From Paracoccus wurundjeri (GTDB taxonomy: Bacteria > Pseudomonadota > Alphaproteobacteria > Rhodobacterales > Rhodobacteraceae), in contig NZ_JAUUTZ010000010.1 in assembly GCF_030678915.1 (NCBI RefSeq), positions 62,001-126,000 of the forward strand: a DNA stretch of 64,000 nucleotides, given 5' to 3'. Positions 53,701-64,000 of this stretch are shown here, in pieces (position 1 is the stretch's first letter; every line of letters begins with the position of its first letter). Made by a program: the position numbers and the translations under genes. Below the pieces are notes generated by a model. It ran no database searches. It was given only the letters and a program-made list of their open reading frames with translations, and had not been told where the DNA came from.

Positions 53701-53777
53701 CGGAGCGTAGCGCAGCCTGGTAGCGCACCTGCTTCGGGAGCAGGGGGTCGGAGGTTCGAATCCTCTCGCTCCGACCA
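53701..53777 (+). tRNA. tRNA-Pro (anticodon CGG)
   Basis: The 77-base gene folds into a complete cloverleaf. The acceptor stem CGGAGCG pairs with CGCTCCG, the D-arm contains AGCCTGGTA, and the anticodon stem CCTGC/GCAGG carries loop TTCGGGA with anticodon CGG. The T-arm loop is TTCGAAT and the 3' end ACCA is encoded. It marks the boundary between core chromosome and a downstream region of different composition, a position typical for island integration. I saw no repeat of its 3' end further right. Confidence 0.96.
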
Positions 53778-54429: not shown

Positions 54430-55293
54430 TTGCTGGAGTTGGCCCATGCGACCTCGAAAAATCTTGGGTTCGCGCATCGGGACGATGTTCATGTCAGCTA
54501 TGGCGAAGAAACAATTACGGAAACCAATCTGCTGGAACTTCGTCGCCGCCATCCTACAATTGTCACTTTGCATACATTCGGAAAGAAGAAAGAGGCTCTG
54601 AACGGCGCGGACTGGGAATGGCACATTATCGGACGGCGCGGGAAGTTCCGAATGCGGGTTCAGGCGAAGCGATTGCAGAAAAACGGCGCGCTGAAGATAC
54701 CACACAAGGTGAAATCGTCAGGCGCGCAGCAGATCGACTTGTTGAGCAAGGATGCCAAGGCCAACCGCTTGCAGCCTATCTACTGCATTTATTCTGCTGA
54801 GAACCAGCGTAACCACTGGGCCACAAAGCCCACTCCGGGAGATTTTGTCGAATTCGAATACGGTTGCCTGCTTGTCAGCGCGAATACTGTGAAGGCGATT
54901 GCTCCGAAGGCTCTGGGCGATATAGAGACACATTGCATCCCTTGGCATTATCTGGTCGAACGCTGTCGGTATGTCGGCGCCGAAGTTTCAGACATTTTGG
55001 AAGTGGACGGCTCCGAGATGCGCTTCGTGATAGCTTCTGGAGTGTTGTCTTCAGTTACAGATGAGGCGCGTGCCATTGATAGCGTCGCCGTTAGGAGTTT
55101 CCCGACGCTCGACGAATTGAACGCTTCAGTTGGGCCAAGTCGGGAGATCGACGGCCTAATTGATGCCAATGACCCCGAATACGAGCGACGTTCCAGTGAG
55201 GAGGAGTACCGCGAACGCAGAATAGGGCGCCTCGTTGAGATTGATGTCCGCGAGATTCCTGTCGCCGAAGATGATGACGAGGACGCTGTGTGA
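54430..55293 (+). CDS. DUF6615-like protein, possible PD-(D/E)XK-type nuclease
   Basis: The 287-residue protein contains SYGEETITETNLLELRRRHP and GADWEWHIIGRRGKFRMRVQAKRL, a combination I associate with DUF6615. The second segment has the spacing of a restriction-endonuclease-like core of the D...QxK (Mrr-like) kind: Asp61 followed by Gln78 and Lys80. QQIDLLSKDAKANRLQPIYCIYSA fits the following helix and strand. The C-terminus is acidic. The start is unclear: the first usable codon is TTG at 54430, an in-frame stop lies 18 bases earlier and there is no ATG before residue 75, so a 5' truncation is possible. It is not tightly linked to dndC (259-base gap). Confidence 0.6.
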   Translation: MLELAHATSKNLGFAHRDDVHVSYGEETITETNLLELRRRHPTIVTLHTFGKKKEALNGADWEWHIIGRRGKFRMRVQAKRLQKNGALKIPHKVKSSGAQQIDLLSKDAKANRLQPIYCIYSAENQRNHWATKPTPGDFVEFEYGCLLVSANTVKAIAPKALGDIETHCIPWHYLVERCRYVGAEVSDILEVDGSEMRFVIASGVLSSVTDEARAIDSVAVRSFPTLDELNASVGPSREIDGLIDANDPEYERRSSEEEYRERRIGRLVEIDVREIPVAEDDDEDAV

Positions 55294-55552: not shown

Positions 55553-56707
55553 ATGGACGGCGCTGAAGCACTCGCACTCGAAGATGAAAGCGTGGCACTC
55601 TTAAGGGCCATCCGCTCAGAACTTCTTGATGAATACCGCCAGGAACATGACTGGCCCTGGATTATCGGATATTCCGGCGGAAAAGACAGCACACTGGTCG
55701 CGCATCTCGTGTTCGAGATGTTGCTAACGCTTCCGCCTTCGCAGCGCACGCGGCAGGTGCATATCGTTGCCAATGATACGCTCGTCGAGAGCCCGCTGGT
55801 TGTCCAGCACATCATTGACAGCATTGAAGAAATTTCCAACGCCGCCGAAGCGTTCAGCTTGCCAATCGTTACTAAAATCACGCGACCGGCCCCTGATCAG
55901 TCTTTCTGGGTGAATCTGATCGGGCGCGGCTACCCCTCGCCGAACCGCTCGTTCCGTTGGTGCACGGACAGGATGAAAATCCTGCCAACAAGCCGCTATA
56001 TCAAGAGCTTGGCGGAAGAAGCCGGGCAAGTGATACTGCTCCTTGGAGTGCGCAGGTCCGAAAGCGCCACGCGCGCGGCCTCGGTGGGCCGCTACGACAA
56101 TGGTGAGCGTTTGAATAAGCACAACGATCTACCTGGCTGCATGGTTTTCCGCCCCATTGTTGAGTTGGATACCGATGATGTCTGGGAATTTCTTGCGCTC
56201 AACGAGCCGCCTTGGGGCGGGTCGCATCTCAAGCTGATCGGTCTGTACCGTGATGCAGGTGGCGGCGAATGCCCGGTGGTCACGTCGAAGGATGATGCTC
56301 CGTCCTGCGGCACCACGTCATCGCGTTTTGGCTGCTGGACCTGCACTGTGGTGGAGAAAGACAGGAGCCTGGAAGGCTTTGTTGAGTCCGGCTACGCCGA
56401 GTTCACGCCGCTTCTCGACTTTCGCGACTGGCTTGCCTCTATCCGCAACGAGAAAGATCGCAGACAAGCCCGGCGGCGCGATGGCCGCATTACGATCACT
56501 GATGGCGGCATCTTTGTCCCTGGCCCTTTTACGCTTCAAACCAGAGCCGAGATATTCGAGCGCTTGCGCGCTCTGGAAAAAGAAACAGGGCAGAGCTTGA
56601 TCACGGAAGAGGAAGTTGATCTCATTCACCAGCTCTGGTCAGAGGAAATCGCAGGCCATAGTAAAGCCAGAACCATGAGTGTTCGTGAAATTGTAAAGGA
56701 GAAGTAG
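55553..56707 (+). CDS. dndC: DNA phosphorothioation sulfurtransferase DndC
   Basis: DndC is a PAPS-reductase-like ATP pyrophosphatase that adenylates or activates the DNA backbone for sulfur insertion and carries an Fe-S cluster. The 384-residue protein has the P-loop YSGGKDST (residues 41-47), the SFRWCTDRMK segment with Cys137, and a cysteine set at Cys240, Cys252, Cys261 and Cys264 (CPVV...CGTTSSRFGCWTC) suitable for the cluster. LGVRRSESATRA and VFRPIVELDTDDVWEFL are typical of the family. It is shorter than classical DndC (about 450-500), lacking part of the C-terminal region. The stop codon abuts the start of the small gene downstream. GGCAGGA precedes the ATG. Confidence 0.9.
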   Translation: MDGAEALALEDESVALLRAIRSELLDEYRQEHDWPWIIGYSGGKDSTLVAHLVFEMLLTLPPSQRTRQVHIVANDTLVESPLVVQHIIDSIEEISNAAEAFSLPIVTKITRPAPDQSFWVNLIGRGYPSPNRSFRWCTDRMKILPTSRYIKSLAEEAGQVILLLGVRRSESATRAASVGRYDNGERLNKHNDLPGCMVFRPIVELDTDDVWEFLALNEPPWGGSHLKLIGLYRDAGGGECPVVTSKDDAPSCGTTSSRFGCWTCTVVEKDRSLEGFVESGYAEFTPLLDFRDWLASIRNEKDRRQARRRDGRITITDGGIFVPGPFTLQTRAEIFERLRALEKETGQSLITEEEVDLIHQLWSEEIAGHSKARTMSVREIVKEK

Positions 56708-56911
56708 ATGCCGCGTAATGTTGTCGTGCTTCTCGATAACCTGGAAGGGCGCGCCATGATCAAGGACGCCTGCAAAGCCAACGGCATGCATTTTGCGGAA
56801 TTCGAAGAGCTTGTTCAGGCGGAAGTCGAACAAACGGGAAAGCAGCGCCGTGCTGGCCTCTGGGATTCCTTTGACGATATTCTGGACCGCATTCAGGTGG
56901 ACGAAAAATAA
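56708..56911 (+). CDS. Small protein of a DNA phosphorothioation operon
   Basis: The 67-residue protein starts at the base after the dndC stop codon and ends three bases before dndD. It is probably helical: MIKDACKANGMHFAEFEELVQAEVEQTGKQRRAGLWDSFDDILDR. It has no cysteine and no known domain. I recall small proteins of this sort named 'DNA modification system-associated small protein', but cannot confirm membership. Its tight location argues for a structural or regulatory part of the DndC-DndD complex. It is not DndE: DndE is about 110-120 residues and a DndE-like domain occurs elsewhere in the operon. Confidence 0.75.
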   Translation: MPRNVVVLLDNLEGRAMIKDACKANGMHFAEFEELVQAEVEQTGKQRRAGLWDSFDDILDRIQVDEK

Positions 56912-56914
56912 CTT

Positions 56915-58999
56915 ATGCACATTTCACAGATCACCTTGCGAGACTGGAAGGCCTATACGACGGCCAATTTCGATTTTCCCGCACCGGCAAGCGGCAAGAA
57001 TATCATTCTCATTGGCGCGCCCAACGGCTACGGCAAGACAAGTCTTTTCGAAGCTATTGTGCTTGGTATGTTCGGGCGCGATGGCTTGCCGCTCATTGCC
57101 CGCTCTCCGTTCTCAGGAGCGGATAAAGAACGGCTTGCCACATCCTACAAGAACTTCCTTGAAAAGGCGCTTCACCGGGGTGCGACAGCAGCAGGCCGCA
57201 CATCCTGTTCCGTAAAGCTGATCTTTACCGATGAGAATGACGAGCCGCTGGAAATCCAGCGTATCTGGCACTTCAGTGATTCCGGCGTCTACCGCGCGCA
57301 GGACGAAGAAATTCATATTTATGAGGGCACGACGCGCAAAGCTGTTGGTCCGGGCGCGTTGCAGGGCAATGACCGCGCGGACTGGTTTCGTGAGTATATA
57401 GCCGAGAATCTATTGCCGTTCACGCTCGCACATTTCTTCATGTTCGACGGCGAACAGGTAAGTGTTTTGGCTGAGCGATCAATGTCGGATCAAGTGCGGC
57501 ATGGTATCGAAGGCATGCTTGGAATGCCTGTTTTGAAGCGGTTGGCAAAAGACTTGCGCGCTTATGCGGAAGTGCGCCGAAAAGATTCGCCCAATGTTTC
57601 TGATAAAACAATCGAAAAAATTGAGCTAGAACGCCACCAGCTTAATTTCGAGAACGATAAGAAGACCGACCGCCTTGCTGAAATAGAACCGTACCGGGCG
57701 ACCCTCAAAGAAGAACAGGAGCATCTAATCCGAGAGCTGGCGAGCTTTGGCTCGGGGTCACAAGCTTTGCTTCAAGAGCAATTCGAGCAAATTAAGAACC
57801 ATGAGCGCGCTATCGAAGGCGGGAATGCCCAGCTTGAAGAGCTGCTTATGAAGGATTTGGCATTGGCGCTTTCCGGCCTTGGCCTGCGCAAGAGCATCAA
57901 GGATCGGCTCTTGAGTGAGGGCGTGCGGGAGCGTTGGGAAAGTGGAAAAAACCAGGGCGATAGTAATCTGGAGCGCTTCTTGGCTTCAGTTGATACCGGA
58001 ATGCAGGAGATCAATCCTTCCTTGAGTGACGGCCAACGGGAAGGCGTGCTGGATAGCGCGCGAGGTGCCTGGGAAAAACTCTGGTATCCCCCGCCCGATA
58101 ACTGCGCTGATGAGTACTTGCATCCTTATCTGAACGAGCTGGAGCGCTCCAAGGTGATCGACCGGCTGGATGAGCTGGATGAGCTGGGGGCTCCGGCGAT
58201 TGTAGAACTTTTGAGCACGATCGCGGCCAATGAGGATTCCCTGAAGCGTCTGCAAGATGAGGTGACGCGCACCGAAGCTGTTGCGCCGCATGTCGATAAA
58301 AAACGCGAACGCCTGACCCAGGTGAACGGCGAGATTCAGCAATATGATCAGGAGATCGGCGCACTGAAGCGTGAAATGGCGTCTTTAGAAACTCAGATCA
58401 ATCAGAAGAACACAGAATTGACGAAGCTTTCCGGCCAGCTTGATCAGGCCGCGCCATCTGCGCGGCGCGCCGCGCGTGCCAACAAGGTTGCGCTGATGGT
58501 CGATGAGATTGTCGCCAAGGCTGTGCCGAGCCAGATCGATGCGATTGCTGCTGCCATGACGAAGGCACACCGTGCCATGGCCCATAAGAAGGACCTGGTG
58601 GAGCGGATCGCGATTGACGAAAACTGCGATGTACAACTGTTGAATACCGATGACATGGATTTGCGGGGCTATGACCTCTCGGCGGGCGAGAAGCAGATTT
58701 TTACCCAAGCCCTGATATCTGCGGTGTCATCCGTTTCGGGACGCGGCTTCCCCATGGTGGTCGATACACCGCTAGGGCGACTGGACATCGAGCACCGCAA
58801 AGGCGTCCTCAATCACCTGGTGCAGCGCGAGCATCAAGTCATCCTGCTCTCGACCAACACGGAAGTCGTCGGAGAGTATTTGCGGGAAATCGAGCCGCAT
58901 GTCCAGAAGAAATATCTCGTTCATTTTGAACGGGTTGGAGATATTGGGCAATCGACAGTCCGGCCCGGCTATTTCGAAGAGACGGGAGGTCAGGCATGA
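56915..58999 (+). CDS. dndD: DNA sulfur modification ATPase DndD (SMC-like)
   Basis: DndD is an SMC/Rad50-like ATPase that works with DndC and DndE in phosphorothioation. The 694-residue protein has Walker A GAPNGYGKTS (34-43) in the N-terminal half-domain. A long coiled coil follows (about 205-535, with a middle break), then the ABC signature YDLSAGEKQIF near 588 and Walker B FPMVVDTPLGRLD near 612-624. FMFDGEQVSVLAERSMSDQVRHGIEGMLGMPVLKRL is characteristic of DndD. Its stop overlaps the next start by four bases (ATGA). The length is about the family's usual size (~660-700). Confidence 0.93.
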   Translation: MHISQITLRDWKAYTTANFDFPAPASGKNIILIGAPNGYGKTSLFEAIVLGMFGRDGLPLIARSPFSGADKERLATSYKNFLEKALHRGATAAGRTSCSVKLIFTDENDEPLEIQRIWHFSDSGVYRAQDEEIHIYEGTTRKAVGPGALQGNDRADWFREYIAENLLPFTLAHFFMFDGEQVSVLAERSMSDQVRHGIEGMLGMPVLKRLAKDLRAYAEVRRKDSPNVSDKTIEKIELERHQLNFENDKKTDRLAEIEPYRATLKEEQEHLIRELASFGSGSQALLQEQFEQIKNHERAIEGGNAQLEELLMKDLALALSGLGLRKSIKDRLLSEGVRERWESGKNQGDSNLERFLASVDTGMQEINPSLSDGQREGVLDSARGAWEKLWYPPPDNCADEYLHPYLNELERSKVIDRLDELDELGAPAIVELLSTIAANEDSLKRLQDEVTRTEAVAPHVDKKRERLTQVNGEIQQYDQEIGALKREMASLETQINQKNTELTKLSGQLDQAAPSARRAARANKVALMVDEIVAKAVPSQIDAIAAAMTKAHRAMAHKKDLVERIAIDENCDVQLLNTDDMDLRGYDLSAGEKQIFTQALISAVSSVSGRGFPMVVDTPLGRLDIEHRKGVLNHLVQREHQVILLSTNTEVVGEYLREIEPHVQKKYLVHFERVGDIGQSTVRPGYFEETGGQA

Positions 59000-60531
59000 G
59001 CATCTCCCTTGTTGAAGTGGCGGGCGCGAATTTTCGTACCGATTATGACAGCGACAAGCTGAACACCGATTTCATGGGACGGCTCGGGATGCGCAAGCGC
59101 TATCTGCCCGCGCGCTTGGCGATTTCACGGTCCTTGGCAATGAATGCGCCCGTACAACTGCCGGATGAAGAATTCGATCAAGGCAAGGTGATCAAAGGAG
59201 ATACGCTATTTGGTACGGGCACGGCCTTGTCGGTCTGGCTAGCGCTGATTGTAGAGCGAACCGGCGAGCCGGATATTGACACCAAGCGCCTGATTTCTCT
59301 GGTCGGTGCCCATTGGCGGCGCGGGTTGGCCAAGCTGGATGAAGAGTGGGGGCAGGCGGGAGAGGATATTGCGAGGTTCGTGCGCCACTTGGCCGAAGTT
59401 GCCGAATTGCCGACTTCTGGTGGCCGGTTGCTCTTCTCCGGCGCTGAGGGCGAAACTGGTGTCACCTTCTCCAGCGGTGAGATCAAAGTGCCCCTGGGCG
59501 AGATTGGCGAAGATGTTTCGACCAAGGAGAAAGTTTTCTGGAGCCTGAACGGCAAGGGCAGCGCGCCGCATACCGCGATCATGGGCGGAAGTGGCTCGGG
59601 CAAAACGGTTATGGCGGCTGCGATGCTGCGCTCGGTTCGCGAGCAAGCGCCGGTGCCGCTGATTGCGTTCGATTTTAAGGGTGACTTGGCAGACTTTACC
59701 GGAACGCAAGGACAAACGGCCCTGGGTGAAGCCTTTGAAGCGAAAGTTATTGAGCCTCCGCGTATGCCAATCCCTCTGGACGTGCTCGCACTCTCTCAAA
59801 AGGATCAGTTCGGGATTGACGAAGCCGCGCTTCGCTTCCGTCAGTCCTTCTCACGCCTGAAGGGCTCCAAGCTTGGCGACCGGCAACGCAACTATGTCCA
59901 TGAGGCGGCGGCGCGGGCTTTGTCGAGCGAAGAGCCTTGCGAGATGCATCATATCCGTGACCGCCTGCTGGAAGTCTATGAAGAACATGAGGCCAAGGAA
60001 GACGGCGCATCGTCCAGCATGGAGGAGCTGTGTCGCTTCCCGTTGTTCGAACCGAAGATGTCTCCGGCGGAATTCTTCCAAAAGAGCTGGATCATTAAAC
60101 TGCCACCCAATGTACCGGAAGATAGCCGTACGATCGTGGTCAATCTTCTTCTGGACGCGCTAGACCAGCATCTAAACGGGCTTGCCGATGCCGAGACAGG
60201 AACGGATGGCGCGCGCGGCTTGCGCGTACTGTGCATGATTGATGAAGCGCATCAGATACTCGGCACAAAGCTACCTTCACTCTCTCGCCTGATCCGCATG
60301 AGCCGCTCGAAAGGTGGTGCGGTGATGCTGGTTTCGCAATCCCCAGATGACTTCTCGGGTGAAGATGACGAGTTCCTCGACAACATGGGATTGGTCGCCG
60401 CCTTTGCGACAAACGCCAAGCCCGGCGCAGCCGCCCGTGTGCTTGGCAAAGGCGCGAACCTTACTAACCTGCAAACAGGCCAATGCTTCGTCCGGTTCGA
60501 CAAGACAACGAAGAAGGTCAAGGCATGGTAG
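58996..60531 (+). CDS. Apparent DndE-HerA fusion: DndE-like N-terminus and HerA-type ATPase
   Basis: The 511-residue protein has two parts. Residues about 12-118 resemble DndE, the small DNA-nick-binding subunit: LGMRKRYLPARLAISRSLAM corresponds to its first helices, GDTLFGTGTALSVWLALIVER to its GEY..LL region and VGAHWRRGLAKLDEEW to its last helix. Residues 185-505 are a HerA/FtsK-type ATPase with Walker A GGSGSGKT (197-204), IAFDFKGDLADF, Walker B VLCMIDEAHQIL (near 411-421), sensor VMLVSQSPDDFSG and an arginine-rich end. The DndE match is from my own reading and is not database-verified. The gene takes the position where dndE normally follows dndD, and the ATGA overlap indicates coupling. 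A DNA-translocating or loading role is inferred. Confidence 0.75.
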   Translation: MSISLVEVAGANFRTDYDSDKLNTDFMGRLGMRKRYLPARLAISRSLAMNAPVQLPDEEFDQGKVIKGDTLFGTGTALSVWLALIVERTGEPDIDTKRLISLVGAHWRRGLAKLDEEWGQAGEDIARFVRHLAEVAELPTSGGRLLFSGAEGETGVTFSSGEIKVPLGEIGEDVSTKEKVFWSLNGKGSAPHTAIMGGSGSGKTVMAAAMLRSVREQAPVPLIAFDFKGDLADFTGTQGQTALGEAFEAKVIEPPRMPIPLDVLALSQKDQFGIDEAALRFRQSFSRLKGSKLGDRQRNYVHEAAARALSSEEPCEMHHIRDRLLEVYEEHEAKEDGASSSMEELCRFPLFEPKMSPAEFFQKSWIIKLPPNVPEDSRTIVVNLLLDALDQHLNGLADAETGTDGARGLRVLCMIDEAHQILGTKLPSLSRLIRMSRSKGGAVMLVSQSPDDFSGEDDEFLDNMGLVAAFATNAKPGAAARVLGKGANLTNLQTGQCFVRFDKTTKKVKAW

Positions 60532-60559: not shown

Positions 60560-61093
60560 ATGCGGAGAGTATTACCAGTGAGTGAATTATATGATCTCGC
60601 CGCCAAGAAGAGTGAGCCGAAGTCACCATTAGATTATTTTCGCGAACATAGGATCAATGTGTTCGTATGGCCGGATGCGTGGCGCAACGCGGCAACGGCG
60701 CAGGCGTTGAACTGGGACAAAGTTGATTTTGGTGAAAATACCGCCAATGACGTGCCGGAACAACGCGGCGTTTATGCTTTTTGTGTCTCGGTGAAGGACA
60801 CGATAATGCCGTCCCATGGCGTCTTAGTCTATTTTGGTGAAACATCCAGGACCCTTCGCAAGAGATACAAAGAATATGTCCGAGATTGCCGAATAGGAGC
60901 CAAACGACCCAAATTTGAAAACCTGTTTAGGCTATGGCCAAATGATCTGGACTTCTTTTTTGCTCCGATAGATGACGACATGTGCGAGCTAAAAGAGATC
61001 GAAGAAGCCTTGAATGATGCCGTCATACCACATTGTGTTACAGATGATTTTAGCGCGGAGATACGGCGCATAGTTCCAGTGTTGAGAGGATAG
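60560..61093 (+). CDS. GIY-YIG-like nuclease domain protein in the dnd operon
   Basis: The 177-residue protein shows the GIY-YIG pattern in the middle: QRGVYAFCV (70-76) and, about 15 residues later, LVYFGETSRTLRKRYKEYVRD (89-109) with the conserved arginine(s), then a glutamate-rich helix (CELKEIEEALNDAVIP) that could provide the metal-binding glutamate. This fits an endonuclease of that superfamily. The N-terminal ~50 residues are unlike known domains. Start is the ATG at 60560 (AGGTGG upstream); a GTG at 60578 is also possible. It lies 28 bases after the fusion gene and four before dndB, so it is a member of the operon and a candidate effector. Confidence 0.7.
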   Translation: MRRVLPVSELYDLAAKKSEPKSPLDYFREHRINVFVWPDAWRNAATAQALNWDKVDFGENTANDVPEQRGVYAFCVSVKDTIMPSHGVLVYFGETSRTLRKRYKEYVRDCRIGAKRPKFENLFRLWPNDLDFFFAPIDDDMCELKEIEEALNDAVIPHCVTDDFSAEIRRIVPVLRG

Positions 61094-61097
61094 GCCT

Positions 61098-62429
61098 ATG
61101 AAGAAGAAGAAAAGACCCGATCCTACGTACCTACCCGCACTCAAGGGGAGGATCGGAAAATGGGCGTTTTATACTACCTTGATGACACTGGATGAAGTCA
61201 ACGAGCGCATCTATTTGAGCGATGAGATATATCAGAACAAAAGCCTGTCTGATATGGTGCAGCGCTCCATCAAATCCGGTCGCGCTGAGAATATTGCATC
61301 CTACCTCAAGAATGAAGTCGAAAGGTTTTTCCCTGCCATGGTCGTCGCCGTTTTTGAAGGCGAGCCCAACTGGCTGGAGTTTTCAATCCGCAAACAGAAC
61401 GACAATCTTGTATTCGACCCAGACACGCTGGATCGGGCCAAGCTAGATTCATTTGGATTTTTGTCATTAAGTGGTGAAGAACACCTCTTTCCATTGGATG
61501 GCCAGCATCGACTCGCCGGAATTCGGGAAGCACTTTCAGACCCTAACAAAGAAAATGAATACCTTGGTTCTGAGGAAGTGACCGTGATGCTTGTTGCGCA
61601 CGATCCCAGCGATGCTGGCCGGACAAGATCACGACGTTTGTTCACAACTCTGAATAAACGAGCCGTCTCTGTGAAGAAACATGAAACAATTGCGCTGGAT
61701 GAGGATGATGTAATGGCTATTGCCACTCGCCATCTCGTCGAGAAGTTCGATCCATTATCGAGGGAAAGCATTGTCTCTTTTCGCACCAGCGCGAACATTT
61801 CCCCGAGTGACACCAAGGTCTTTACCGCGATTGTGACACTGTACGACCTTCTGTTTGATCTTTTTAAAGTTATTTCTAAAAGGACGGCAGACGACTTGAG
61901 GTATAACCGCCCGGATGACGAGTGGACTGACGTTTATCGGGCGTGTGCTGAGTGTTTTTTCACGTCTTTGATGGAAGCTTTCCCTGAGACGAAGAGGTGC
62001 CTCGCGGGCAATGATCCAGAAAAGGTCATCATAGAGAACCGCAGACAAGACGGCGGTCATATTCTGTTTCGCCCTGTTGGACTTCGCATGTTTGCTCAAC
62101 TGGTGGCTGCGGCAGTTAAACCGTCAATTACTGCTACATTCGAAGAACCCAAGCAATCTCCATCTGCTGTAAAGCAAAAGGTAGTCGATGAGATAAAGAA
62201 AGCGGTTGCGTTGTATTCTGATCTGCCAACGGAGCTGGCATATAGACCATACGCAGGTCTGATCTTCGATCCCGACACTCACAAGATTAGCGTTGGAAGA
62301 GCCGCGATTGTGCGTGATGTTATTCTGAAACATTATGGCCTGATCAAGCCGAGCGTGGACAAAGCTCTATCTTCCAGGATCAAACGCAGCATTGGAGACG
62401 ATTATAGCGCTGAAGATTTCCTTTGGTAG
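61098..62429 (+). CDS. dndB: DNA sulfur modification regulator DndB (DGQHR protein)
   Basis: DndB represses dnd transcription and affects the spacing of phosphorothioates. The 443-residue protein has the diagnostic LDGQHRLAG motif at 134-141 with the preceding LSLSGEEHLFPLDGQHR. A conserved TLNKRAVSVKKHETIALDEDDVMAIATRHLV segment and a C-terminal helical domain are also present. Family length is about 360-450. In classical systems dndB is the first gene of the operon or lies just outside; here it is the last, after the GIY-YIG gene with a four-base spacer. AGGA precedes the ATG. Confidence 0.9.
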   Translation: MKKKKRPDPTYLPALKGRIGKWAFYTTLMTLDEVNERIYLSDEIYQNKSLSDMVQRSIKSGRAENIASYLKNEVERFFPAMVVAVFEGEPNWLEFSIRKQNDNLVFDPDTLDRAKLDSFGFLSLSGEEHLFPLDGQHRLAGIREALSDPNKENEYLGSEEVTVMLVAHDPSDAGRTRSRRLFTTLNKRAVSVKKHETIALDEDDVMAIATRHLVEKFDPLSRESIVSFRTSANISPSDTKVFTAIVTLYDLLFDLFKVISKRTADDLRYNRPDDEWTDVYRACAECFFTSLMEAFPETKRCLAGNDPEKVIIENRRQDGGHILFRPVGLRMFAQLVAAAVKPSITATFEEPKQSPSAVKQKVVDEIKKAVALYSDLPTELAYRPYAGLIFDPDTHKISVGRAAIVRDVILKHYGLIKPSVDKALSSRIKRSIGDDYSAEDFLW

Positions 62430-62457: not shown

Positions 62458-63522
62458 TTAGTTCTTCGAAGCTGAAACGGCCATAGCGACCCAGTGGATG
62501 TTATTTCGTCCGAGCAAATCCGCTTGCTCGCCCAGTCTTTCTGCCATCAGCGCGAGCTTCCTGAGCAGGTCTTGCAATGCTTCTTCGGAGACGCGGTAAA
62601 TGCCGCGCCCAGGTTCGGAGGGGCCGATCCGCAAGGTTAGGTAAATCCGTCCGCCCGGTTTCAGGAGGCTGGCGAGGGTTTCCAATGCGTGGCGCCTGTC
62701 ATCCGGTTTGACGTGCATCCAAACGGCGCTGAGGATGATCAGGTCAAACGTCTCGCCGGTTGCGCGCGTGTCGGCTAGATCAGGTAAGCTGTCTAATCGC
62801 CATTCGATATCAGGCGATGGATGCAGACGCTTACCGATGGCCTGCATGGCTTCCGAGGGCTCCACGGCAACGATCCGGTGGCCGTTAGCTGCAAACCATG
62901 ACGCATCGCGTCCTGTCCCCGCGCCGACATCGAGGACGGCCAAAGGCTGTTCATCAAAATGCTCGTTGATTAGTGTGAGAATCTTTGGGTGCGCGGTTTC
63001 CAGTGACAAGGTTTCGTAGCCGTCTGCAAGGCGGGCTGCGTGCTCCTCGTAATAGGTCAGGGCTGGGTCTTGCGGCATGGTGCCAAATACCTCTCCACGG
63101 CTAGTCCAAGCAGTCACGATCAAGAGAATCAAGCTGAGGATCGCTGCGAGCAATAGCATGAACTGGAACAAGGACCGAACAAGGAACGGTTTGTTGTACC
63201 ATTGGGCACCCTTGGCCGAGACATGTCCGGCTGGATAGGTCTTCTCCAACCAATCGAGATGCTGCTGCATGACAAAGCGCAGGCGCATAATGATCACAAA
63301 AAGCGCGCCGTTTCCGGCTGCTGCGAGGAAAAGCAGAGCTAGCTGAAATAGAGGAAATTCCTCCACGCGCGATACGCCAAACCATAAACCGCCGGTGAGC
63401 GTCATCGAGATCAGGGGGATTTGCCACATCTGCTGGTTTAAGGAGCGAAACGAGGCGTGGTTCTGGTCGAACGCCGCCTTGTGCATCTCGTGTTCGATTT
63501 CTTCAGGCGTCACGTCATTCAT
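62458..63522 (-). CDS. Membrane-anchored class I SAM-dependent methyltransferase
   Basis: The 354-residue protein combines three hydrophobic segments (about 34-50, 57-80, 118-139) in the N-terminal half with a class I methyltransferase domain from ~150. Motif I is VLDVGAGTGRDASWF (196-210), motif II VAVEPSEAM and motif IV DLIILSAVWMHV, with GGRIYLTLRIGP near the end. The combination is unusual. It is convergent with dndB, with 28 bases between the stop codons. The substrate is unknown; a lipid, small molecule or membrane protein is possible. It may be an island accessory or a host cargo gene. Its ATG at 63522 has no strong ribosome binding site. Confidence 0.78.
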   Translation of the reverse strand: MNDVTPEEIEHEMHKAAFDQNHASFRSLNQQMWQIPLISMTLTGGLWFGVSRVEEFPLFQLALLFLAAAGNGALFVIIMRLRFVMQQHLDWLEKTYPAGHVSAKGAQWYNKPFLVRSLFQFMLLLAAILSLILLIVTAWTSRGEVFGTMPQDPALTYYEEHAARLADGYETLSLETAHPKILTLINEHFDEQPLAVLDVGAGTGRDASWFAANGHRIVAVEPSEAMQAIGKRLHPSPDIEWRLDSLPDLADTRATGETFDLIILSAVWMHVKPDDRRHALETLASLLKPGGRIYLTLRIGPSEPGRGIYRVSEEALQDLLRKLALMAERLGEQADLLGRNNIHWVAMAVSASKN

Positions 63523-63620
63523 TCCAGTTACAGGCTCGAATCGGCACTAAAGGTAACCGGGCGTTGCGCGACAAACCAGCCGAGATGCATCGATACATTT
63601 AGAGAACAGGTAAGGCCTAT

Positions 63621-64000
63621 TCATCGGGCATCGGCGTTCGGGCAGCATTTCTGTTTCGACGGACAAACCTGACAGGTCAGTTGCAGGGCGCGATATTTGG
63701 CGCGCCCCTTGCCGGTCGGTCAGGTCGAGGCGGCAGAACCAGCGATAGGCTAGGTTCAGATGCACCTCCTCGCAGAGCCGCCGTTCGGAGCGAATGCCAA
63801 AGCAATAGCCGACCAACAGCATGCGGATCAGCAACTCGGGATCGACGGACGGACGCCCTGTGTGGCTGTAGAAATCCGCAAGGTGGGCGCGGATGCTGCC
63901 CAGGTCTACGAACCGATCAATGGATCGCAGAAGGTGATCATCCGGGACATGATCTTCCAGCGAGAACTCGTAGAACAGCGCTGGTTGCGCTTCCTGCCTC
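63621..64000 (-). pseudogene. IS1182-family transposase remnant (internally deleted, running off the window)
   Basis: On the minus strand the right end encodes ALFYEFSLEDHVPDDHLLRSIDRFVDLGSIRAHLADFYSHTGRPSVDPELLIRMLLVGYCFGIRSERRLCEEVHLNLAYRWFCRLDL, the N-terminal part of an IS1182-type transposase. At about 63700-63715 the sequence jumps. In another frame it continues as KYRALQLTCQVCPSKQKCCPNADA, which matches the cysteine-rich region that normally lies ~200 residues further on, and then meets a stop at 63621. The DDE catalytic middle is therefore deleted, and the element is not active by itself. The 3' end lies before 63620 and the 5' end is outside the window. Confidence 0.82.

What the first reader, a model, noticed from the sequence alone, without database searches (positions are those of the whole stretch)
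58996..60531. A DndE-like domain fused to a HerA-type ATPase inside a phosphorothioation operon
Directly visible: one 511-residue frame with a full HerA/FtsK-type ATPase (Walker A GGSGSGKT, Walker B MIDEAH) and a ~115-residue N-terminus with the helix pattern of DndE, at the genomic position of dndE. Established: DndE is a small protein needed for DNA sulfur modification; HerA-like ATPases occur in Dnd-associated restriction (DptH/DndH). Inference: the fusion would physically join modification and a DNA motor, so one ring may scan or load DNA for sulfur insertion or for discrimination of unmodified DNA. I know of no described system of this build.
Basis: partly seen in the sequence, partly recalled or inferred. 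Interest (0 to 1): 0.88.

Follow-up and report, generated by a model that had tools for sequence, protein, structure and literature searches.

The report
Sulfur-marking protein carrying a DNA motor

Summary
One 511-residue frame (58996-60531 +) has an N-terminal DndE domain (PF08870 above cut-off; predicted fold closest to solved DndE structures), a flexible linker, and a HerA/FtsK-class motor whose closest solved relative by far is the C-terminal motor of DndH. It follows dndC, a small gene and dndD, an order kept in most relatives. It is the only DndE detected in its genome. But 'no described system of this build' is wrong: Rakesh, Aravind and Krishnan (2024, PMC10853773) say in one sentence that clade-3 HerA/FtsK domains are fused to DndE beside a DndD-related ATPase.

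A tree rejects one clade of fused motors, so DndE probably gained ring motors at least twice. Function is untested; I favour a motor that moves the modification complex along DNA.

The parts
58996..60531 (+). dndE::HerA fusion, 511 aa; DndE domain about residues 1-136, linker about 137-160, DndH-type HerA/FtsK motor about 161-511
56915..58999 (+). dndD, ABC ATPase of the DndD/CxC group (no CxC motif seen in the translation)
   Evidence: TIGR03185 260.6 bits over cut-off 245.85; PADLOC's best model for it is labelled PbeC, 1070.5 bits
56708..56911 (+). small gene, 67 aa; homologues in relatives are annotated 'DNA modification system-associated small protein'; weakly like the C-terminus of long DndC
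   Evidence: homologue upstream of the fusion in 37 of 40 loci with at least 4 kb upstream; weak hit to DndC profile positions 398-445, E 0.0019; annotated name
55553..56707 (+). dndC, PAPS-reductase-like sulfurtransferase
   Evidence: TIGR03183 369.3 bits over 290.4
60560..61093 (+). GIY-YIG-like nuclease, about 177 aa
   Evidence: PF01541 16.6 bits, below its cut-off of 22.6; GVY, YxG, LRxR and a glutamate kept in all 4 aligned sequences, the window's and 3 relatives'; two of these relatives hit no Pfam family at E<=0.1
61098..62429 (+). DGQHR/DndB-like protein
   Evidence: PF14072 94 bits over 29.1; TIGR03187 103.3 over 58.85, but DndB equivalog TIGR03233 only 53.2 of 328
62458..63522 (-). 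SAM methyltransferase with a hydrophobic N-terminus (by eye), possible accessory
   Evidence: Methyltransferase domains; 50% identical to the methyltransferase beside the R. phaseoli DndE-FtsK operon, homologues in 6 other HerA-type loci, one of them partial; membership in the system is inferred
54430..55293 (+). DUF6615 protein upstream, doubtful member
   Evidence: PF20320 29.7 bits over 23.8; no tblastn match at E<=1e-3 in the DNA held for the related loci

Best explanation
This is a DNA phosphorothioation operon whose DndE, the DNA-binding subunit of the DndC-DndD-DndE modification complex, carries its own DNA-pumping ATPase of the DndH type. Most likely the motor assembles as a ring on double-stranded DNA and moves DNA past the DndE reader and the DndC/DndD modification complex, so that target sites are searched by translocation and not by diffusion alone; sulfur marks already present probably slow or stop the motor, as reported for DndFGH. 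Shown here: domain make-up, intact catalytic residues, operon, a single detected DndE, no DptF found. Inferred: ring formation, translocation, PT sensing, order of events.
For: DndE and motor identity by profile and fold. Motor residues invariant in 47 of 47 rows. In the 40 of 48 loci with at least 4 kb upstream, dndC is found in 38, the small gene in 37 and dndD in 38, which ties the fusion to modification and not to a separate nuclease. Of 48 genomes searched for DndE, 44 have exactly one match, in a frame of 393-1,229 residues; 3 have none; one MAG (G449) has two fusions and one 130-aa DndE. DptF marker 0 of 48, control rings. A second, FtsK-type motor sits on DndE after dndD, as if a motor on DndE were useful in itself. 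PT represses ATP hydrolysis and translocation of DndFGH (PMC11662687, passages).
Against: I found no experiment on any fused DndE. Canonical DndE works without a motor. The motor's nearest solved relative belongs to a restriction enzyme, which would fit restriction as well as modification. PT in this organism is not shown, and a cysteine desulfurase was not searched for. DptF absence rests on one model, in genomes many of which are MAGs.
Confidence: 0.42

Rival explanations
1. The fusion is a self-contained restriction engine: the motor runs along unmodified DNA and the DndE domain (or the GIY-YIG nuclease next door) nicks it, replacing DndFGH.
For: Motor closest to DndH (PADLOC DndH 66.2 bits); DptF found in 0 of 48 genomes (control); DndFGH is described as having translocation-coupled nicking activity (PMC11662687, passages); archaeal DndE turns supercoiled DNA into nicked or linear products (PMC9239217, abstract).
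Against: Residues named for nick binding in archaeal DndE (R19, K23) align to T24 and G28 here and vary among the 47 rows. In the DNA held, a relative of the GIY-YIG gene was found in 3 of 48 related loci, L042, L043, L046. dndC stays in the operon.
Confidence: 0.28
2. Simple tethering: the motor keeps a restriction partner and the modification complex in one place and stoichiometry, without coupling translocation to sulfur insertion.
For: The stretch between the two parts (residues 137-162 here) is 19-27 residues long in the 47 rows and partly of very low confidence (139-152).
Against: Motors of two different lineages in the same slot, with proteins of similar length (498-518 aa in the HerA type; 496-566 aa in the 11 FtsK-type rows), suggest a set geometry.
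Confidence: 0.15
3. The operon makes a mark other than phosphorothioate, or regulates it, and the DndE-motor serves that.
For: Rakesh et al. note DndD-DndE cores without PT genes (section 24); a methyltransferase recurs beside both motor types.
Against: dndC of the PT type lies upstream in 38 of 40 loci with enough DNA.
Confidence: 0.1

Closest known systems
Clade-3 HerA/FtsK-DndE fusions of Rakesh, Aravind and Krishnan 2024 (PMC10853773)
   Same: HerA/FtsK domain fused to DndE in one polypeptide, beside a DndD-related ABC ATPase, in a subset of Dnd modification systems (section 22)
   Different: One sentence in the text I read; figures and supplements could not be read, so I cannot match accession by accession. 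An FtsK-type fusion is not in the passages read.
DndH C-terminal motor (PDB 7es4)
   Same: Nearest solved fold of the motor, Z 36.9; in a 28-row tree the HerA-type motors lie on the side of two DndH motors and one plasmid DUF87 protein, away from FtsK, support 100/99
   Different: In the two DndH seen (1,675 and 1,729 aa) the motor ends a large restriction protein; here it is fused to DndE in 511 residues
Canonical DndE (PDB 7x4e, 4lrv)
   Same: Fold of residues 1-136, Z 13.4 and 12.1
   Different: Stand-alone DndE in the records seen is 117-142 aa with no motor
DndE-FtsK proteins annotated 'DNA translocase FtsK' (R. phaseoli WP_064823497.1 and others)
   Same: Same operon slot after dndC, small gene, dndD; DndE-like N-terminus
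   Different: Motor is FtsK_SpoIIIE with an FtsK alpha domain, on the side of cellular FtsK in the tree and nearest to PADLOC's SspH C-terminus

Membership tests
DndE (PF08870) | Profile match over the curated cut-off | tested here: met
   31.5 bits over 25, residues 27-116
DndE (PF08870) | NCBIfam equivalog TIGR03184 over its cut-off of 71.85 | tested here: not met
   18.7 bits; the stand-alone DndE of M. amorphae also fails it (18.4 bits). So it is filed as a divergent DndE-domain protein, not as that equivalog
DndE (PF08870) | Two ribbon-helix-helix units with long last core helix; clade-1 loop lengths (3-5 and about 7) | tested here: met
   Predicted model: helices 17-30, 36-47, 75-89, 96-120, 125-136; loops of 5 and 6 residues against sections 13 (passage) and 14 of PMC10853773
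DndE (PF08870) | Gene next to dndD | tested here: met
   ATG overlaps dndD stop by 4 bases
HerA/FtsK-class motor | Walker A, Walker B, arginine upstream of strand 4 and sensor Q at its end | tested here: met
   K203, T204, D416, E417, R434, R437, Q448 in 47 of 47 rows; strand 441-447; the Q and arginine criteria are those given for DndH in PMC10853773 (passage). Which arginine is the finger was not tested
HerA/FtsK-class motor | Hexameric ring and DNA translocation | not testable with these tools
   no multimer prediction or assay
PT modification operon | DndC and DndD over NCBIfam cut-offs | tested here: met
   369.3 over 290.4; 260.6 over 245.85
PT modification operon | Cysteine desulfurase (DndA/IscS) in the genome | not tested
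   no search made
PT modification operon | PT in the DNA | not testable with these tools
   needs LC-MS/MS
DndFGH restriction module | DptF (TIGR03238) in the genome | tested here: not met
   0 of 48 genomes, own included (in which no control rang); repeated with a DndFGH plasmid, which rang at 2.2e-135, own genome again 0; a divergent DndF could be missed
Clade-3 HerA/FtsK-DndE fusion of PMC10853773 | Position in that paper's clade 3 | tested here: inconclusive
   Lies with two DndH motors in my tree; the paper's own sequences and supplement were not available

The most novel reading that the evidence does not exclude
DndE-motor operons are a distinct class of phosphorothioation defence in which a restriction-type translocase has moved into the modification complex: DndE was joined at least twice, once to a DndH/HerA-type and once to an SspH/FtsK-type pump, and the fusion makes a separate DndFGH (or SspFGH) module dispensable. 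SspFGH absence was not tested.
Probability: 0.4. Interest if true: 0.72.

Novelty: new member of a known kind. Interest (0 to 1): 0.5.

Why it matters
PT systems mark only part of their target sites, and how sites are chosen is open (PMC8092258, passage). A DndE with a built-in pump makes one answer directly testable: kill the ATPase and see whether marking, restriction or both are lost. Motors of two lineages in the same gene slot suggest the coupling is selected for. In the passages read, the published notice is one sentence without a functional proposal for the fusion.

Tried and rejected
Rejected: that the N-terminal match is chance (profile, fold and 44 of 47 aligned rows agree). Rejected: that the small gene 56708-56911 is a nonsense-mutated end of dndC. 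In the window it starts right after the dndC stop, in the same frame; among the 39 relatives compared it is in the dndC frame in 20 (11 of these with no gap) and in another frame in 19, and the small frame persists. In FtsK-type loci without a separate small-gene match, dndC itself is longer (436 aa in L088, 447 in L090). Rejected: that a second DndE serves the operon.

Led nowhere: the motor also matches the MADS protein mad8 (62.1 bits, second best in PADLOC; FtsK-type fusions 88-104 bits), and my paper search for it found nothing, so a link to MADS stays open. The 2020 ABC ATPase paper that I looked for by DOI is not held. No second copy of the tRNA-Pro 3' end was found in the window or in the next 40 kb, so island ends are unset. 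A PARIS-like pair behind FtsK-type operons is only partly supported: 8 of 10 stretches have an AAA ATPase like that of M. amorphae, but of 8 partner proteins tested DUF4435 passes its cut-off in 1, is below it in 2 and absent in 5, M. amorphae included. The name PARIS and its make-up are recalled.

Rows dropped before counts: L024 (short) and L034 (contig end) from alignment A2; L050 also from A3; L054-L056 (match over 43-65 residues only) from the 51 loci. In the motor tree 12 of 47 HerA-type rows were chosen and one (L038) fell out because the motif used to cut the domain was not found; with it stand only 2 DndH, 3 FtsK, 1 DUF87 and 11 FtsK-type rows, and no classical HerA. The DndD tree used 33 chosen rows, last 480 residues, without L065, a near copy of L064. 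Both trees are unrooted, several rows have odd composition, long inner branches separate the two motor groups, and Mam2 is flagged as a long end branch.
Full report
What is there. The frame at 58996-60531 (+) is intact and codes for 511 residues. It begins inside the end of dndD. Upstream lie dndC (55553-56707), a 67-residue gene (56708-56911) and dndD (56915-58999); downstream a GIY-YIG-like gene (60560-61093) and a DGQHR/DndB-like gene (61098-62429).

The N-terminus is DndE. PF08870 is hit over its cut-off at residues 27-116, and 44 of 47 aligned rows match it at E<=0.001. A profile of 46 N-terminal domains finds archaeal DndE 7x4e first among the solved chains (E 1.2e-4; next 0.038). The predicted N-domain (mean pLDDT 93.4) matches DndE 7x4e (Z 13.4) and 4lrv (Z 12.1), then F-plasmid relaxosome chains (best 9f0x, Z 8.8); Rakesh et al. 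superimpose DndE on TraY (Figure 2 legend). Loop lengths of 5 and 6 residues fit their clade-1 DndE, the kind paired with DndD. The strict NCBIfam model TIGR03184 is not passed (18.7 of 71.85 bits), so this is a divergent DndE. A stand-alone 'DndE family protein' of Mesorhizobium amorphae is 43% identical to residues 2-116.

The C-terminus is a DndH-type motor. The whole model (mean pLDDT 88.4) has DndH C-domain 7es4 as best solved match with Z 36.9, ten units above the next (VirB4, 26.8). PADLOC gives DndH 66.2 bits at the DndH C-terminus, then mad8 62.1 bits. Catalytic residues are invariant in 47 of 47 rows. The stretch between the parts is 19-27 residues, of which 139-152 have pLDDT under 50.

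Distribution. A genome-contig scan gave 51 loci, 48 of them fusion relatives with 40-96% identity. By record title they are mostly Alphaproteobacteria with some Gamma- and Betaproteobacteria and one MAG labelled Rhodothermales; L046 and L053 come from one MAG, so 47 genomes. Of 385 genomes of the class, 3 carry the fusion, own included, and a fourth matches over 71 residues only; of 24 other genomes of the genus none does, so it is patchy and probably moves horizontally. In the 40 loci with at least 4 kb upstream, DndC is found in 38, the small gene in 37, DndD in 38; the exceptions are L021, L024 and L050. PF08870 finds one DndE per genome in 44 of 48 genomes, none in 3, and three in one MAG (two fusions and a 130-aa DndE). 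DptF of DndFGH is found in 0 of 48; nothing rang in that call's controls, so the search was repeated with a DndFGH plasmid, which rang at 2.2e-135 inside its annotated dptF, while the own genome and four plasmids with DndE-FtsK did not. Many of these genomes are MAGs. PF14072 (DndB) is found in 17 of 48.

A second motor on DndE. tblastn in plasmids showed proteins annotated 'DNA translocase FtsK' with a DndE-like N-terminus. In Rhizobium phaseoli, Aureimonas and Burkholderia glumae the order is dndC, small protein, dndD, DndE-FtsK. The R. phaseoli and M. amorphae proteins carry PF08870 and FtsK_SpoIIIE over cut-off; FtsK_alpha is over cut-off in the first, below it in the second. M. amorphae has a stand-alone DndE and a DndE-FtsK side by side. 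In a sample of 398 genomes of the phylum, 18 have PF08870; ten lie in frames of 503-574 residues, the own HerA type and nine others, all nine nearest to the FtsK type among my queries. In a sample of 385 genomes of the class 8 have PF08870: three HerA-type fusions, own included, one broken FtsK-type and four in frames of 147-296 residues. PADLOC's SspH is the best hit of the three FtsK-type proteins tested, 155-171 bits. In a tree of 28 motor domains the FtsK-type fusions lie with cellular FtsK and the HerA-type with DndH and one DUF87 protein, each side 100/99; holding all fused motors as one clade is rejected, p 0.009. On a DndD partner tree of 33 rows the fused systems are not one clade (p 0.00016), with HerA one clade and FtsK two. 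So motors were probably gained on DndE at least twice, or swapped; losses in stand-alone lines are not excluded.

What is known. PMC10853773 (abstract, passages, and sections 14, 16, 17, 22, 24 and 26 read) states that clade-3 HerA/FtsK domains of a subset of Dnd systems are fused to DndE beside a DndD-related ABC ATPase, citing its reference 24. A paper by Krishnan and others of 2020, which I recalled as that reference, is not held. Section 22 also says that the FtsK-alpha domain found in one set of Orc/CDC6-linked systems is otherwise found only in certain DndH proteins and classical FtsK. I found no mention of an FtsK-type DndE fusion in the passages read or in searches; the supplement could not be read, so this is no proof of absence. 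DndFGH is described as having translocation-coupled nicking activity, with ATP hydrolysis repressed by PT (PMC11662687, passages). SspFGH damages DNA without PT, and the C-terminus of SspH is aligned with FtsK (PMC8092258, passages). A 2025 study by structure prediction and assays gives a loop of DndC the key role in recognising the motif (PMC12193691, abstract), which limits how much specificity DndE need carry. Archaeal DndE nicks DNA and prefers nicked DNA through R19 and K23 (PMC9239217, abstract); the aligned residues here are T24 and G28 and vary.

Mechanism. I commit to a motor that moves DNA relative to the DndC-DndD-DndE complex (0.42), because the conserved unit is the modification cassette and I found no nuclease conserved with it. 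The main rival is a built-in restriction engine (0.28), because the motor's nearest solved relative is DndH and DptF was not found. Both predict that ATPase mutants lose function; they differ in whether PT level or DNA damage changes.

Verdict. Real, correctly read at the domain level, already in print as an architecture, with no experiment found. The added value is the distribution, the missing DptF and the second motor.

Noticed in passing
L057:9995-11521, L059:12693-14183, L061:9992-11533, L063:8001-9524, L078-L085, L087: DndE fused to an FtsK-type motor after dndD; in the plasmid records annotated as 'DNA translocase FtsK' or 'FtsK/SpoIIIE domain-containing protein'.
   Followed up: yes
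L088:10027-12096 and similar in L089, L090, L092, L093, L096, L097: FtsK-type operons are followed by an AAA_21 ATPase (AriA-like in PADLOC, tested for L088) and a protein of about 300 residues that is DUF4435 in some; this resembles the PARIS pair (recalled).
   Followed up: partly
L057:11554-11757, L063:9521-9757: A TusA-family sulfurtransferase gene follows the DndE-FtsK gene, a possible sulfur carrier for the modification.
   Followed up: partly
window 56708-56911: Small gene starts in frame directly after the dndC stop (TAG ATG) and weakly resembles the end of long DndC; in L088 dndC is longer, so it may be a detached DndC tail.
   Followed up: partly
window 53701-53777 and 63547-63999: The operon lies between a tRNA-Pro gene and a frame with a DUF772 transposase domain, which looks like an island; no repeat of the tRNA end was found.
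   Followed up: partly
L024:9736-10975: Rhodobacter calidifons has the start of dndC directly followed by the motor part only, an internal deletion or an assembly fault.
   Followed up: no
window 56915-58999: PADLOC's best model for this DndD is labelled PbeC, although none of the 8 operon-region proteins scanned hits PbeA; its PbeC and DndD labels overlap widely.
   Followed up: no
window 58996-60531, residues 165-508: The motor also matches the MADS protein mad8 in PADLOC (62.1 bits), as do the FtsK-type fusions; a relation to MADS was not worked out.
   Followed up: no
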